Of a stretch of 64,000 nt of DNA, positions 1 through 5,052 are shown piece by piece. The DNA is from Polaromonas sp. A23. Its GTDB lineage: Bacteria > Pseudomonadota > Gammaproteobacteria > Burkholderiales > Burkholderiaceae_C. The translations under genes and the position numbers were made by a program. Within the stretch, counting starts at the first letter, position 1, and each line of letters begins with the position of its first letter. Where the stretch lies: contig NZ_MUNO01000041.1 of NCBI RefSeq assembly GCF_002001015.1, positions 1 through 64,000 of the forward strand, written 5' to 3'. The notes under the pieces are model-generated. The model saw only the letters and a program-made list of their open reading frames with translations, was not told where the DNA came from and ran no database searches.

Positions 1-294
1 GCCACCACCGCCGCCGAAGCCGCCGCCAGTGCGTGGAGGACGTGCCTCCATCGGACGGGCTTCGTTCACGACAACGCTACGGCCGCCCAGAGGCTGGCCG
101 TTCATGCCGGCGATAGCTGCTTGAGCTTCGGCATCGCTACCCATTTCCACAAAGCCAAAGCCTTTGGAGCGACCGGTGTCGCGTTCCATCATGACTTTAG
201 CGCTGGTGACAGCGCCAAATTGGCCGAAAGATTGTTGCAAGTCTTCGTCGCGCACTGAGTAAGGCAGATTGCCGACGTATAGTTTGTTGCCCAT
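1..294 (-). CDS. RRM-domain RNA-binding protein (3' end outside window)
   Basis: The protein begins MGNKLYVGNLPYS and holds one RNA recognition motif over residues 3-80. RNP2 is LYVGNL and RNP1 is KGFGFVEM. A Gly/Arg-rich tail (GGGFGGGG) starts near residue 90 and is cut by the window edge. The layout matches the small glycine-rich bacterial RNA-binding proteins, which bind single-stranded RNA and are often cold-induced. The ATG at 294 follows a GAGGAG ribosome site. A promoter and a leader of over 100 bases lie upstream. The exact RNA targets cannot be told from sequence. Confidence 0.93.
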   Translation of the reverse strand, partial: MGNKLYVGNLPYSVRDEDLQQSFGQFGAVTSAKVMMERDTGRSKGFGFVEMGSDAEAQAAIAGMNGQPLGGRSVVVNEARPMEARPPRTGGGFGGGGG

Positions 295-425
295 GAAGGG
301 ACTCCTCTAAAACACAATAACAAAAGCGATGGGGTCCCGAAAGCACAACAAATCTAAACGTACCGCTGTAGCGCGCGAAACTGACCGATCACCTAACCTG
401 TGTGGATTTTGTACCCACACCCCGC

Positions 426-795: not shown

Positions 796-1038
796 TCATT
801 CCAGCTGCTTGGCCGGTGCGCCGGGCGCATCTTCCTCGTCGCCGGTGTAATTGCGCCACCGGTCCATGGCCAGCCGCATGGTGCGTAGCTGATTTTCAAA
901 CTGCGGACAGGCCTTGCACATCAGCAAATGCAGACGCAGCGCGACAGTATCGGCCAGACTGAGCGCCCGGTCTTCGCGTGCAACCAGCAATGCAGCTGCC
1001 TCTTTGCAGGTTCGATGGAGGGGAAGGTCTTTCATCAT
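796..1038 (-). CDS. zinc-finger anti-sigma factor (zf-HC2 type)
   Basis: The 80-residue protein starts MMKDLPLHRTCKEA and carries HLLMCKAC, the H-x3-C-x2-C core of zinc-binding anti-sigma domains, plus an upstream Cys in TCKEA. It has no membrane segment, so it is a soluble regulator. It sits 14 bases downstream of the ECF sigma gene on the same strand, the usual place for a cognate anti-sigma factor. It probably holds the sigma factor inactive until a metal or thiol signal arrives. The ATG pair at 1038/1035 was preferred to the upstream 1092 start, which overlaps the sigma gene. The role follows from motif and position; the signal is not visible. Confidence 0.78.
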   Translation of the reverse strand: MMKDLPLHRTCKEAAALLVAREDRALSLADTVALRLHLLMCKACPQFENQLRTMRLAMDRWRNYTGDEEDAPGAPAKQLE

Positions 1039-1052
1039 TTCGTGCGCTTCAT

Positions 1053-1619
1053 TCAGCCGGGGTGCTGGCCAAACCAGTGAATGCTGAGGCATTCACGCAA
1101 ACGCAAGCGGGCTCGGTGCAGCTGGACATAAAGATTGGTCGGCGTGAGCGAGAGTTCCTTACAGACTTCTTCACAAGACAACTCCAGCCATTCACGCATC
1201 AGGAACAATCGCCCCAACGCGGGCGGCAACCGCTCGACACATGCATCGAGCACCTGAAAGAACTGGCTTTGCTGCAAGGTCTGTTGCGGGTCACCCCAAT
1301 TCCCGGGTGGATTGGCAAAGTGGCCGTCGGCTTTGAAGGCCAGCTTGTCCAACTCATCGGCTTCTTCATCGGCACCGTGATCCGGGGCGGCCATTTCGCG
1401 CGCATTACTGCGGATCTGGTCAATGACCTTGTGTTTGAGGATGCCGACCAGCCAGGTCTTGAGCTGAGACCGGTTTCCGAAGGACTGGGGTTTCGACAAA
1501 GCGGCCAGCATGGTTTCCGACACAGCGTCTTCCGCCCACGCGTCGCTGCGCAGCTGCAACCTCGCAAAACGCATGAGGTAGACGCGGTGCTCAACCAGTT
1601 GCTCTTCGAAGGTGGCCAT
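1053..1619 (-). CDS. ECF-type RNA polymerase sigma factor
   Basis: The 188-residue protein has sigma region 2 at residues 10-70 (LMRFARLQLRSDAW, FGNRSQLKTWLVGILKHKV) and region 4 at residues 120-180 (ERLPPALGRLFLMREW, then a helix-turn-helix SLTPTNLYVQLHRARLRL). It resembles the small sigma-70 group that pairs with a zinc-finger anti-sigma gene. The ATG at 1619 gives MATFEEQ; a GTG at 1640 is an alternative, and neither has a strong ribosome site. It is transcribed away from the TlpA-like gene at 1743. The likely targets are the GTAAG-N17-GACTAA promoters at 1674 and 2391. No copy of that motif faces the sigma gene itself, so autoregulation is not indicated. Confidence 0.9.
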   Translation of the reverse strand: MATFEEQLVEHRVYLMRFARLQLRSDAWAEDAVSETMLAALSKPQSFGNRSQLKTWLVGILKHKVIDQIRSNAREMAAPDHGADEEADELDKLAFKADGHFANPPGNWGDPQQTLQQSQFFQVLDACVERLPPALGRLFLMREWLELSCEEVCKELSLTPTNLYVQLHRARLRLRECLSIHWFGQHPG

Positions 1620-1673
1620 GGATGGCAAGTCTAGCCGCACCGCAGCGCGGCATGGAAAAAAACGGATAGCAGC

Positions 1674-1701
1674 GTAAGGATCCCGGCTCCACGGCGACTA
1701 A
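1674..1701 (+). promoter_or_regulatory. candidate ECF promoter, copy 1 (TlpA-like gene)
   Basis: GTAAG at 1674-1678 and GACTAA at 1696-1701 are separated by 17 bases, 41 bases before the ATG at 1743. The same two boxes with the same 17-base spacer occur before the bufferin operon (2391-2418), while the spacers differ. A GTAA-type -35 box is known for some ECF factors that control bufferin genes (Caulobacter SigF). Assignment to the adjacent sigma factor is inference. Confidence 0.6.
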
Positions 1702-1742
1702 TCCGTTTGCACTGTCGCTGCAGGCTATCAAAGGACACCATC

Positions 1743-2345
1743 ATGGGCTTCACCCACCAACTATCAGTCTCCGCTGCCTCGCATCGCGTTTACCGTTCTG
1801 TCCGGGCGTTACTTTGCCTGGCAGTGCCCGCCCTAGCCGCGCTGGGGATGGCCGCACCCACGCTGGCACAAACACCGCCGTCCTCCCCCAAGGCCGAAAA
1901 TGTTGCTGCCGCGCCGGCTACCACCGCCGCACCGCATATCGAAGGCAAGACGATTGCGGGCCTTCCGTTCAAGCTGTCCTCCCTCAAGGGCAAGGTGGTG
2001 CTGGTGCTGTACTGGTCCACCAACTGCGCGGTGTGCCGCGACAAGATGCCGGAACTGCGGACCAACTACGAAGGCTGGGCAGGCAAGCCGTTCGAGCTGG
2101 TGGCCGTCAGCACCGACAAGCGCATGCAGGAAGTGGTGGAATACGAACGCATCATCGCTCGCACCGTGCCCATGAAGCAACGCTTTGTGCAACTCTGGAC
2201 GGGTGACGACAGTTACCGCGACAACCTGGGTCAGCATGCCCAGCTACCCGCGGGCTACTTGATTGACAAGTCTGGCAAAGTGGTTGAACGTTACGTGGGC
2301 CGCATCCCTGCAGAGGCTTGGGACCGCATTGCAGATCTGCTTTGA
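1743..2345 (+). CDS. TlpA-like thioredoxin-fold protein, exported
   Basis: The 200-residue protein has an N-terminal signal sequence with a hydrophobic stretch at residues 22-40 and a likely cleavage after LAQ (residue 43). A TlpA/ResA-type thioredoxin domain follows, with the redox motif CAVC (Cys95 and Cys98) after WSTN. Such proteins reduce or exchange disulfides in the periplasm. The ATG at 1743 follows an AAAGGA ribosome site; the longer frame from 1707 runs into the promoter. It is divergent from the ECF sigma gene and shares a promoter motif with the bufferin operon. It may keep bufferin cysteines or other periplasmic thiols reduced during metal stress; this is inference. Confidence 0.88.
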   Translation: MGFTHQLSVSAASHRVYRSVRALLCLAVPALAALGMAAPTLAQTPPSSPKAENVAAAPATTAAPHIEGKTIAGLPFKLSSLKGKVVLVLYWSTNCAVCRDKMPELRTNYEGWAGKPFELVAVSTDKRMQEVVEYERIIARTVPMKQRFVQLWTGDDSYRDNLGQHAQLPAGYLIDKSGKVVERYVGRIPAEAWDRIADLL

Positions 2346-2390
2346 ATAACAGCCGGGCGCAATTTTTTTTTGGCGGATCGAAAATTCCCT

Positions 2391-2418
2391 GTAAGAAAAC
2401 GCCAGCGTGCCGGACTAA
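2391..2418 (+). promoter_or_regulatory. candidate ECF promoter, copy 2 (bufferin operon)
   Basis: GTAAG at 2391-2395 and GACTAA at 2413-2418 are 17 bases apart and lie about 75 bases before the precursor gene at 2495. Boxes and spacing match the copy at 1674-1701. It is the only good promoter candidate I see in the 149-base gap between the TlpA-like gene and the bufferin operon. Confidence 0.6.
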
Positions 2419-2494
2419 GCTTTAACCAGTCAGGAATTTCACTGCACTGGTTAATTTCTAACTTTAATTTGTGCAAACTCACTGGAGATTTCAA

Positions 2495-2785
2495 ATGAAC
2501 CAACGCGCCCTTATCGCTGCAGCAGCAGCTTCCCTGCTGTCCACCATGCTGGTTGCAACGCCTGCTGCTGCCCAGGACAAAGAAAAATGCTACGGCATCG
2601 CCAAGGCCGGCCAGAACGATTGCGCCAACCTCAGCGGCTCCCACTCCTGCGCAGGCCAGTCCAAGGTCAGCGACGATGCGAACGAGTGGAAATATGTGGC
2701 CAAAGGCACTTGCACCGGCATGAAGGGCATGACGGCCGACCAGGCCAAGATGAAGGCCAAGCCAATGATGGACAAAAAGAGCTGA
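2495..2785 (+). CDS. bufA1: bufferin-type RiPP precursor (DUF2282)
   Basis: The 96-residue protein has a signal peptide ending near TPAAAQ (residue 27), then a short core with four cysteines at 32, 43, 52 and 73 in the contexts EKCYG, NDCAN, HSCAG and GTCTG. These are hallmarks of DUF2282 bufferin precursors. Described bufferins are exported peptides whose cysteines are modified by an MNIO enzyme and which bind copper. The ATG at 2495 follows GGAGA. The gene is immediately followed by the DUF692 enzyme, the DUF2063 partner and a DoxX gene, as in known buf operons. The Lys/Met-rich tail (residues 77-96) has no recognised function. The metal specificity here is inferred from the family. Confidence 0.88.
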
Positions 2786-2792
2786 TCGCTTT

Positions 2793-3740
2793 TTGCCTCA
2801 ACTGACGTCATCTGAGCGGAGCGGCAAACTCTTGGCACCCGAGCGCTTTGCCCAGATGGCGCATCCTGCAGGAATGTCCACCGGCATAGGCTGGCGGCAT
2901 CCGCATTACGCGCAGGTGCTCGAAAGCAAGCCTGCGCTAGACTTTCTTGAAGTCCACTCCGAGAATTTTTTTGGTCAGGGCGGCGCCGCCCTCGCCGTGT
3001 TGCAGCAGGCGCGGCAGACCTACCCGATCAGCTTGCATGGTGTGGGTCTGGCACTGGGGTCTGTTGCCGGTGTGGACCCGTGGCATCTGGACCAGCTGTC
3101 GCAACTGGTAGAGCGAATCGATCCGGTCCGGGTCTCAGACCATGCATCGTTTGCGCGCGGACAAGTGAACGGTTTGAACCTTCACGCAGCGGACTTGCTG
3201 CCCATCGCCTTTCACCGGCGCTCATTGGATGTCCTGTGTGCCAATGTGCAGCAGGTCCAAGACCGGCTCAAGCGCGTTTTGCTGGTTGAAAACCTCTCTG
3301 CCTACGTCAGCTTCAACAGCTCCGACATGGACGAAGCTACCTTTCTGGGCGAGCTGGCCAGTCGCACCGGTTGTGGCCTGCTGGTCGATGTAAACAATAT
3401 TTACGTCAATGCGCTCAATGCGCGTCTTGCAGGCAGCACCGCTGATCCGGTGCGCGCCTGCATGGACTGGCTGGACCAACTGCCGTCCCGCGCCGTGGCC
3501 GAAGTGCATGTCGCCGGCCACAAAGACTGCGGCGACATCGTGATCGACGACCACGGCAGCCTGGTGTGCGACCCGGTGTGGGAGATCTACCGCCACGCAC
3601 TGGCCCGCTTTGGCGGCTCGCCGGAGGGTCTGGCGAGCCTGGTGGAGTGGGATACAGACATCCCGCCGCTGCAGGTGTTGCTGGATGAAGCCGCACGCGC
3701 ACGCGTTTTTCAGACGCATGCCCAAGAGGTGCCCGCGTGA
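2793..3740 (+). CDS. bufB1: MNIO-family (DUF692) bufferin-modifying oxygenase
   Basis: This is a 315-residue DUF692 TIM-barrel protein. Conserved metal-site segments are visible in order: [42 protein letters not shown] and VEWDTDIP. The family uses a multinuclear non-haem iron centre to convert peptide cysteines to heterocycles; here the substrate should be the DUF2282 peptide encoded 7 bases upstream. The start is uncertain: TTG at 2793 is used here, TTG at 2832 has a GGAG site 10 bases before it, and ATG at 2856 leaves a 294-residue protein that keeps the whole domain. The 3' end overlaps the GTG of the next gene by 4 bases, implying translational coupling. Confidence 0.9.
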
Positions 3741-4543
3741 AGTGCGACGATTTCCCGGAGCAACAGGCTTTGCTGCAGGCCGTGCTTGGTGCGGGCGATG
3801 TGAGTGCACTGTTGCGGTGGCTGCCACAAGGCCAGTCGGCCCGACGATTGAGCGAACGCGGCCTGCTGGCCTATCGCGCCAATGGTCAGGCGCTGGCGGA
3901 ACGCGCCCTCGCGGCGGCCTACCCGGTGCTGTTTCAGCTCATGGGAGAAGAAAATTTTGCAATGCTTGCGCGCCATTTCTGGTCCGTGCATCCGCCTTTA
4001 CGCGGTGACATGGCTTGTTGGGGCGAGGATCTGGCAGGCTTCATCGACGCCGCACCTCAGCTGGCTGCCGAACCCTACTTGGGCGATGTTGCACGGCTCG
4101 AGTGGTTGATGCACGAGGCCAGCAGTGCAGCAGATGTAGAGGCCGACCCGGCCTCGTTTGCCTTGCTGGCATCAGGTGACGCGGAGCCGGTCACTCTCAG
4201 CCTGGGAGCCGGCGTGGCGACGCTAGCAAGTTCTTATCCAGTGGCCAGCATTGTCAACGCGCACCTGTTGGGTGACCCCTCCCTGCAGCAAGCCGGGCAA
4301 CGGCTTGCCGATGGCTGCGCCGAGCATGTGCTGGTCTGGCGCCAGGGCTTCAACCCGTGTGTGCGACTGAGCAGTCCAGCAGAACACAAGCTGATCGAAG
4401 AACTTCTGGCTGGACATGCGCTTGCAGATGCACTGGATGCCGTGGACAGTCTGGGCGATGCAGCCTCAGTGTTTGATTTCAACATCTGGCTGGCAAACGC
4501 CGTACAGACCGGCCTGGTCTGCGGTGCGCATCCGTGCCAATAA
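3737..4543 (+). CDS. bufC1: DUF2063-family partner protein of the MNIO enzyme
   Basis: The 268-residue protein starts with GTG overlapping the stop of the MNIO gene. The N-terminal half (residues 1-95) matches the DUF2063/HvfC-BufC domain, with [28 protein letters not shown] and [11 protein letters not shown]. In characterised systems this protein binds the precursor and presents it to the MNIO enzyme. The C-terminal half is less conserved. Gene order precursor-MNIO-DUF2063-DoxX is that of bufferin operons. I see no catalytic motif, consistent with a recognition subunit. Confidence 0.86.
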
Positions 4544-4557
4544 CCAAGAGGAGAGAA

Positions 4558-5052
4558 ATGATGACAACCACTGGCACGAGCACAACCACAAGCAGCCAAC
4601 CGGCATGGGTCATTCGCGGGCTCAACGCCTGGTGTCTGTTGACCCGGTCGCTGGATGCATTGCAGCCGCTGGCCGCGCTCCTGGCGCGCCTGTACATTGC
4701 GCAGGTGTTTTTTCTGTCGGGGTTGACCAAGCTGCGTGACTGGGACACCACGGTGGCGCTGTTCACCGATGAATACAAGGTGCCGTTGCTGCCGCCTGCG
4801 GCCGCGGCGTTCATGGGAACAGCGGGCGAACTGGTGCTTCCGGTTTTGCTGGTGCTCGGTCTGGGCGGGCGTTTCTCAGCGCTGGGGCTGTTTGTTGTTA
4901 ACGCTGTGGCGGTGATCTCGCTGAGCGAAATTGCCCCGGCAGCGCTGCAACAGCACGTCTTCTGGGGTTCGCTGCTTGCAGGGCTGGCGATTTATGGCCT
5001 GGGCCCGTGGTCGCTGGACCGCTGGCTGGCACCCCGATTCGGCCGGAATTGA
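4558..5052 (+). CDS. DoxX-family membrane protein
   Basis: The 164-residue protein has about four hydrophobic segments and the DoxX signature near residues 40-60 (LYIAQVFFLSGLTKLRDW). The ATG at 4558 follows a strong AAGAGGAG ribosome site, so the upstream ATG at 4534 is rejected. It lies 14 bases after bufC and ends the operon. DoxX proteins accompany many bufferin operons; a redox or membrane role in handling the modified peptide is assumed but not established. Confidence 0.85.
   Translation: MMTTTGTSTTTSSQPAWVIRGLNAWCLLTRSLDALQPLAALLARLYIAQVFFLSGLTKLRDWDTTVALFTDEYKVPLLPPAAAAFMGTAGELVLPVLLVLGLGGRFSALGLFVVNAVAVISLSEIAPAALQQHVFWGSLLAGLAIYGLGPWSLDRWLAPRFGRN

What the first reader, a model, noticed from the sequence alone, without database searches (positions are those of the whole stretch)
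796..5052. ECF sigma, anti-sigma, TlpA-like protein and bufferin operon form one stress module
Seen: a DUF2282 precursor with four conserved Cys, DUF692/MNIO enzyme, DUF2063 partner and DoxX gene, with an ECF sigma/zinc-finger anti-sigma pair 0.7 kb away and a TlpA-like thiol protein between. Known: bufferins are copper-binding RiPPs made by MNIO enzymes and controlled by ECF factors in Caulobacter. Inference: the TlpA-like gene is part of this regulon. Its linkage to the buf genes seems little described.
Basis: partly seen in the sequence, partly recalled or inferred. Interest (0 to 1): 0.75.

Follow-up and report, generated by a model that had tools for sequence, protein, structure and literature searches.

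The report
Sigma-factor regulon linking bufferin and TlpA
In these environmental bacteria (Polaromonas and relatives) one stress-switch protein appears to turn on, together, a copper-binding peptide, a thioredoxin-like helper protein and a methionine-repair enzyme that work outside the inner membrane, and its own gene seems to hide a second switch that turns its brake protein back on.

Summary
In detail: the window (Polaromonas-like, Comamonadaceae) carries zinc-finger anti-sigma and ECF sigma genes, divergent from a TlpA-like gene and a four-gene Buf1 bufferin operon. tlpA and bufA each have GTAAG-N17-GACTAA at identical spacing; the only other exact copy in the 4.58 Mb genome precedes msrP. 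A matrix trained only on relatives' bufA promoters finds the motif before msrP in 29/30 sigma-positive but 5/27 sigma-negative genomes, before tlpA in 53/66 buf-linked and 10/14 unlinked loci, and before DUF1223 in 12/13 sigma-positive genomes. tlpA also sits inside a buf operon run by a different (sigmaF/NrsF-like) system. Corrections: the system resembles Neisseria SigE / Haemophilus RpoE2 rather than Caulobacter SigF; the likeliest cue is oxidant/thiol damage, with copper possible but untested. New: a predicted promoter hidden inside the sigma gene, kept at synonymous positions (78/81 genes against at most 49 after codon shuffling), would transcribe the anti-sigma alone as negative feedback. 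TlpA's redox partner is inferred, not shown. New variant of a known kind.

The parts
796..1038 (-). anti-sigma factor, soluble zinc-binding (ZAS) type
   Evidence: zf-HC2 27.4 bits against 22.2 and antisigmaE 63 against 50; C13, H39, C43, C46 invariant in 87 relatives; start codon chosen by eye
1053..1619 (-). ECF sigma factor
   Evidence: PRK12520 302 bits against cut-off 255 and TIGR02943 217 against 162
1135..1162 (-). predicted intragenic sigma-dependent promoter for the anti-sigma gene, GTAAGGAACTCTCGCTCACGCCGACCAA, 96 bp before the anti-sigma start
   Evidence: matrix score 22.0; conserved at synonymous positions
1674..1701 (+). predicted sigma-dependent promoter of tlpA, GTAAGGATCCCGGCTCCACGGCGACTAA
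   Evidence: exact motif, one of three in the genome; scores 22.2, no shuffle of 1000 as high
1743..2345 (+). TlpA-like exported thiol-disulfide oxidoreductase, active site CAVC
   Evidence: PF00578 50.9 bits; AlphaFold2 pLDDT 94-98 over residues 61-200, ResA/TlpA fold
2391..2418 (+). predicted sigma-dependent promoter of the buf operon, GTAAGAAAACGCCAGCGTGCCGGACTAA
   Evidence: exact motif; present in nearly all relatives
2495..2785 (+). BufA, Buf1 (DUF2282) bufferin precursor with four Cys
   Evidence: PF10048 84.3 bits; four Cys invariant
2793..3740 (+). BufB, MNIO maturase (exact start uncertain)
   Evidence: PF05114 305 bits; NF050167 308.4 bits against 310
3737..4543 (+). BufC, DUF2063 partner protein
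   Evidence: PF09836 52.7 bits
4558..5052 (+). DoxX family membrane protein
   Evidence: PF07681 63.2 bits

Best explanation
The locus is the hub of one ECF sigma regulon for periplasmic thiol, methionine and copper stress. The soluble zinc-binding anti-sigma holds the sigma factor and lets go when its Cys/Zn site is oxidised or metallated (inferred from MseR, HrsE and RsrA). Free sigma then reads GTAAG-N17-GAC(T/C)AA promoters (supported by comparative evidence, not by transcription data) in front of tlpA, of bufABC-doxX, of msrP and of a DUF1223 thioredoxin-like gene elsewhere in the genome. It also reads a promoter hidden inside its own gene that transcribes only the anti-sigma, so the response limits itself (predicted). 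The bufferin sequesters periplasmic copper (known for Buf1), MsrP repairs oxidised methionines (known), and the TlpA-like protein most likely keeps periplasmic thiols reduced, with the bufferin's cysteines the best candidate partner (inferred).
For: Identical motif and spacing before tlpA and bufA, third exact genomic copy before msrP, one-mismatch copy before DUF1223. A matrix trained on bufA sites only predicts msrP promoters in 29/30 sigma-positive against 5/27 sigma-negative genomes, DUF1223 in 12/13 sigma-positive genomes and tlpA in 16/20 linked and 9/12 unlinked loci, 53/66 and 10/14 in a partly overlapping named survey. Off-spacing control sites precede none of these genes. TlpA and BufB co-occur in 26/28 against 39/123 genomes. 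tlpA inside a sigmaF/NrsF-like buf operon in G118. Intragenic site kept at synonymous positions. Experimental relatives: Neisseria SigE and Haemophilus RpoE2 regulons.
Against: No transcription data. Only about 18 of 65 BufB genomes have tlpA beside the operon. Three near-complete genomes keep buf and tlpA without a close sigma, and two of them keep the tlpA motif. Five genomes without a close sigma have the motif at msrP. Several Polaromonas loci lack a recognisable tlpA motif (L206, L209, L210, L211, L265). The redox partner of the TlpA-like protein is a guess.
Confidence: 0.75

Rival explanations
1. tlpA is only a neighbour: it was inserted between sigma and bufA in an ancestor and stays there by vertical descent, with no shared control or function.
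For: Most linked loci have the same gene order and come from related genera; the linked label is clustered on the TlpA tree.
Against: tlpA has its own motif in most linked loci and in 9/12 to 10/14 unlinked ones; it also occurs downstream of doxX (L051) and between bufA and bufB under a different sigma type (L060/L409); gene presence tracks BufB.
Confidence: 0.08
2. The shared promoter is real, but the regulon is primarily a copper response: copper displaces zinc in the anti-sigma, and the TlpA-like protein serves copper handling, for example by reducing copper-binding thiols.
For: Buf1 bufferins bind copper and gig genes are copper-induced; the PDB holds a TlpA-ScoI copper-chaperone complex (4txo).
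Against: The most constant target is msrP, a methionine-oxidation repair enzyme; the nearest tested relative, Haemophilus RpoE2, answers hypochlorite.
Confidence: 0.3
3. The TlpA-like protein is the recycling reductase of periplasmic methionine sulfoxide reductases, a stand-alone version of the TlpA-fold domain of Neisseria PilB/MsrAB.
For: The PilB N-terminal domain has a TlpA fold, reduces MsrA and MsrB and belongs to the SigE-controlled msrAB protein; some relatives have secreted MsrA with the motif (L142, L146).
Against: The window's genome has one MsrA match, without a signal peptide and without the motif, and MsrP is recycled by MsrQ from quinols (general knowledge); tlpA presence tracks BufB.
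Confidence: 0.2
4. The site inside the sigma gene is a coding coincidence: the conserved residues CKEL..TPTN force a motif-like sequence.
For: The amino acids alone give a passable motif: on average 39 of 81 codon-shuffled genes still score 14 or more.
Against: 78/81 real genes reach 14 and 61/81 reach 18 (shuffle maxima 49 and 22); TGT at Cys153 in 34/36 genera against 14/92 elsewhere; residue 160 varies (Pro, Ser, Ala) while its codon keeps ending in CG.
Confidence: 0.12

Closest known systems
Neisseria SigE-MseR regulon (NMB2140-2145 and msrA/msrB; PMC2893595, PMC3240639)
   Same: Soluble ZAS anti-sigma downstream of the sigma gene, DoxX cluster in the regulon, promoter GTMAGBWTT-N12/13-CGTCTAAH that overlays ours, a TlpA-fold domain in the regulon (fused to MsrAB)
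   Different: There sigma and anti-sigma lie in the same autoregulated operon; here they are divergent, no motif precedes sigma, the TlpA-like protein stands alone, and MsrP and DUF1223 are targets
Haemophilus influenzae RpoE2-HrsE regulon (PMC7907618)
   Same: Small cytoplasmic ZAS anti-sigma, periplasmic methionine sulfoxide repair (msrAB, mtsZ) plus the DoxX/MNIO/DUF2063 cluster
   Different: Genes dispersed; no TlpA-like gene in the cluster; no intragenic anti-sigma promoter reported in the passages I read
Caulobacter crescentus SigF-NrsF regulon (PMC3511200)
   Same: Same two kinds of target: DUF2282 bufferin operons and YedY (MsrP)
   Different: Membrane anti-sigma NrsF and promoter GTAACC-N16-CGAA
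Corynebacterium glutamicum SigH-RshA (PMC3489674)
   Same: Sigma-dependent promoter inside the sigma gene that transcribes only the anti-sigma gene
   Different: Unrelated phylum and promoter sequence; bufferins not involved
Cupriavidus metallidurans gigPABT / rpoQ-rsqA (PMC10304878)
   Same: Buf-type operon divergent from an ECF sigma and anti-sigma pair; copper-induced
   Different: Predicted membrane-bound anti-sigma; no TlpA gene; no evidence there for initiation from an RpoQ promoter

Membership tests
Buf1 bufferin gene cluster | DUF2282 precursor with signal peptide and four conserved Cys | tested here: met
   PF10048 84.3 bits against 22.4; four Cys invariant in 103 relatives; signal peptide judged by eye
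Buf1 bufferin gene cluster | MNIO enzyme with DUF2063 partner and DoxX in the operon | tested here: met
   PF05114, PF09836 and PF07681 above cut-off; NF050167 308.4 against 310, just below
Buf1 bufferin gene cluster | Thiooxazole-modified Cys and copper binding | not testable with these tools
   needs mass spectrometry
Neisseria SigE / Haemophilus RpoE2 type ECF system | Soluble ZAS anti-sigma downstream of sigma | tested here: met
   82 aa, no membrane span by eye; H-x3-C-x2-C and C13 invariant; antisigmaE 63 against 50
Neisseria SigE / Haemophilus RpoE2 type ECF system | Promoter of the GTMAG...CGTCTAA class | tested here: met
   GTAAG-N17-GAC(T/C)AA against the published consensus; the second -10 base differs (A against T)
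Neisseria SigE / Haemophilus RpoE2 type ECF system | Sigma factor in the same clade | not tested
   Neisseria and Haemophilus sequences were not fetched; no tree made
Caulobacter SigF-NrsF system | NrsF (DUF1109) membrane anti-sigma | tested here: not met
   the anti-sigma is zf-HC2, with no NrsF match
Caulobacter SigF-NrsF system | Promoter GTAACC-N16-CGAA | tested here: not met
   window promoters are GTAAG-N17-GACTAA
TlpA / ResA thiol-disulfide oxidoreductases | Thioredoxin/ResA fold with CxxC | tested here: met
   PF00578, CxxC invariant, Foldseek ResA/TlpA hits at E about 1e-10
TlpA / ResA thiol-disulfide oxidoreductases | Curated TlpA (NF047696) or ResA (NF002854) model cut-off | tested here: not met
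   49.8 of 230 and 50.2 of 170 bits: TlpA-like, not TlpA or ResA proper

The most novel reading that the evidence does not exclude
The TlpA-like protein is a dedicated extra component of the bufferin machinery in Comamonadaceae: a periplasmic reductase that keeps the modified bufferin's thiols, or its outer C32-C73 disulfide, in the copper-binding state, recruited to the same sigma regulon with its own promoter.
Probability: 0.33. Interest if true: 0.75.

Novelty: new variant of a known kind. Interest (0 to 1): 0.62.

Why it matters
It ties bufferins, whose regulation and physiology are poorly known, to a defined periplasmic repair regulon (MsrP, thioredoxin-like proteins) and gives testable promoters for each member. 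It adds a gene whose fold names (TlpA, thioredoxin, redoxin) do not occur in the main text of the published MNIO cluster survey. It also indicates, by synonymous-codon conservation, a promoter hidden in a sigma gene that would wire in negative feedback, a layout that among the papers I read is shown experimentally only for Corynebacterium SigH.

Tried and rejected
A first pattern search used the wrong spacing through a miscount (spacings 15-16); kept as a negative control, it gave no sites before redox or buf genes. A simple regular expression missed most relatives' sites and was replaced by a matrix. A first tlpA upstream scan used a contaminated background and cut off some promoters; it was replaced by per-region dinucleotide shuffles. 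msrA as a general target was not supported: 8/30 against 3/30 at score 11, p = 0.09. The recurring sites in rpsL (recognised from the codons, not checked further) and, at first sight, in the sigma gene looked like coding artefacts; the rpsL site stays one, while the sigma site passed the synonymous-shuffle test. Sigma autoregulation from upstream was rejected, 0/81. Literature searches joining DUF692 with TlpA, ECF and Msr with TlpA, or DUF1223 with sigma factor returned nothing.
Full report
What is there. The window is from a Polaromonas-like member of the Comamonadaceae: the closest named relatives of its TlpA-like gene are Polaromonas spp.. On the minus strand lie a small zinc-finger anti-sigma (about 796-1038) and an ECF sigma factor (1053-1619); divergent from them are a TlpA-like gene (1743-2345), a DUF2282 bufferin precursor (2495-2785), an MNIO enzyme (2793-3740), a DUF2063 protein (3737-4543) and DoxX (4558-5052).

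Is tlpA in the regulon? tlpA and bufA share GTAAG-N17-GACTAA at identical spacing, 41 and 76 bp before their start codons. In the whole 4.58 Mb genome the exact pattern occurs three times: these two, and one 32 bp before the start of msrP (YedY). Of the two sites with one mismatch, one lies 32 bp before a DUF1223 secreted thioredoxin-like gene and one inside the sigma gene. An 11-base pattern is expected roughly once or twice in such a genome, so the count alone proves little; the places matter. In Caulobacter the bufferin sigma factor also controls YedY (PMC3511200).

Control and generality. In 28 relatives the correctly spaced pattern repeatedly lies before bufA, tlpA, msrP, msrA, DUF1223 and periplasmic thioredoxins, whereas the off-spacing pattern (15-16) precedes none of these in the 30 sites read. 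I built a matrix only from relatives' bufA sites and applied it elsewhere. msrP: 29/30 genomes with the sigma against 5/27 genes from genomes without it, Fisher 4.6e-10. Because the motif's presence at msrP, away from the locus, depends on the presence of the sigma gene, the motif is most simply this sigma's promoter. DUF1223: the gene is in 13/16 sigma-positive and 1/16 sigma-negative genomes, and 12/13 sigma-positive copies carry the motif. tlpA: 16/20 buf-linked and 9/12 unlinked genes have the motif at p < 0.01 against dinucleotide shuffles. Three of the four linked exceptions have reasons: a truncated contig (L045), tlpA downstream of doxX (L051) and tlpA between bufA and bufB (L060), the last two probably co-transcribed. 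In 80 named loci 66 tlpA genes sit by buf genes, and 53/66 linked and 10/14 unlinked ones have a motif, in Polaromonas, Ramlibacter, Caenimonas, Hydrogenophaga, Variovorax, Rhizobacter and others. That survey used tlpA as bait, mostly from linked loci, and overlaps the family set in part, so the linkage rate is biased upward. The less biased figure comes from 151 family genomes: TlpA and BufB co-occur in 26/28 against 39/123 (p = 1.6e-9), TlpA and sigma in 22/28 against 43/123 (p = 2.8e-5); relatedness inflates these p values. Conversely only about 18 of 65 BufB genomes have tlpA next to the operon, so it is an accessory gene.

An independent case. In genome G118 (L409) a tlpA-like gene sits between bufA and bufB in an operon whose promoter matches Caulobacter's GTAACC-N16-CGAA and which lies near a sigmaF-like gene followed by an NrsF-like membrane protein (the two regulators were recognised by eye). 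The association with bufferin thus recurs under another sigma system.

A hidden promoter in the sigma gene. The site at 1135-1162 (-) lies in the codons for the region-4.2 helix-turn-helix. In 81 distinct sigma genes Cys153 is TGT in 76/80 although TGC outnumbers TGT 163:41 elsewhere in the same genes; Lys154 is always AAG; residue 160 is Pro, Ser or Ala but its codon nearly always ends in CG. Shuffling synonymous codons within each gene leaves at most 49/81 genes with a score of 14 or more against 78/81 observed, and at most 22 against 61 at a score of 18. With about one gene per genus the bias is the same: TGT 34/36 against 14/92 elsewhere. The site lies a median of 83 bp before the anti-sigma gene, and no motif precedes the sigma gene itself in any of 81. 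I infer a sigma-dependent promoter for the anti-sigma alone: negative feedback without positive autoregulation. Corynebacterium sigH-rshA has this wiring experimentally (PMC3489674).

Mechanism. Established for relatives: Neisseria SigE with the ZAS protein MseR controls the DoxX cluster and trx-msrAB (PMC2893595, PMC3240639); Haemophilus RpoE2 with HrsE controls msrAB, mtsZ and the DoxX/MNIO/DUF2063 cluster under hypochlorite (PMC7907618); the N-terminal domain of PilB/MsrAB has a TlpA fold and recycles the Msr domains with electrons from DsbD (PMC6210582). Our anti-sigma has the invariant Cys plus H-x3-C-x2-C set. The window's TlpA-like protein is confidently a ResA/TlpA fold with CAVC but scores far below the curated TlpA and ResA models. 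Its partner is inferred: the window's genome has a single MsrA match with no signal peptide, which weakens the Msr-recycling idea there, while tlpA tracks BufB. In Buf1 the central cysteines are modified and the outer pair forms a disulfide (PMC12452194), which would give such a reductase an obvious substrate.

Limits. Nothing here measures transcription, metal response or peptide modification. Three near-complete genomes (G036, G048, G111) have buf and tlpA but no close sigma; two of them keep the tlpA motif, so another sigma may read it or the loss is recent. 'Sigma-negative' means no match at E <= 1e-40. No tree with Neisseria or Haemophilus sigmas was made. tlpA, msrP, DUF1223 and the internal sigma site were not used to train the matrix; bufA sites were, so bufA counts are not independent.

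Verdict.

Noticed in passing
window 1135-1162 (-), and the sigma genes of 80 relatives: Promoter-like site inside the sigma gene, conserved at synonymous codon positions, about 83-96 bp before the anti-sigma gene.
   Followed up: yes
G000:C22:344644-345699 (L160, L277) and 29 further genomes: The sigma motif lies 52-91 bp before the msrP start in 29/30 sigma-positive genomes, including sigma-positive genomes in which no close BufB was found; msrP looks like the core target of this sigma.
   Followed up: yes
G000:C11:32994-33800 (L005, L161, L403): DUF1223 secreted thioredoxin-like protein of unknown function: present in 13/16 sigma-positive but 1/16 sigma-negative genomes, with the motif upstream in 12/13.
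   Followed up: partly
L037, L038, L044 (upstream of tlpA) compared with window 1-300: In G048, G036 and G131 the sigma/anti-sigma pair is missing between an RNA-binding-protein gene and tlpA, although the buf operon and its motif (no bufA found in G036) remain; in G131 the sigma lies on another contig.
   Followed up: partly
L146 (G040:C29), about positions 2000-2200: Two divergent sigma-motif sites, one before a secreted MsrA and one before a small exported Met/Lys-rich protein (repeats like MKK) with no Pfam match, perhaps a methionine sink.
   Followed up: no
L130 (G013:C71:21854 onward): A second Cys-rich exported peptide with the sigma motif and no Pfam match, a few kb downstream of the buf operon and near a second MNIO gene.
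   Followed up: no
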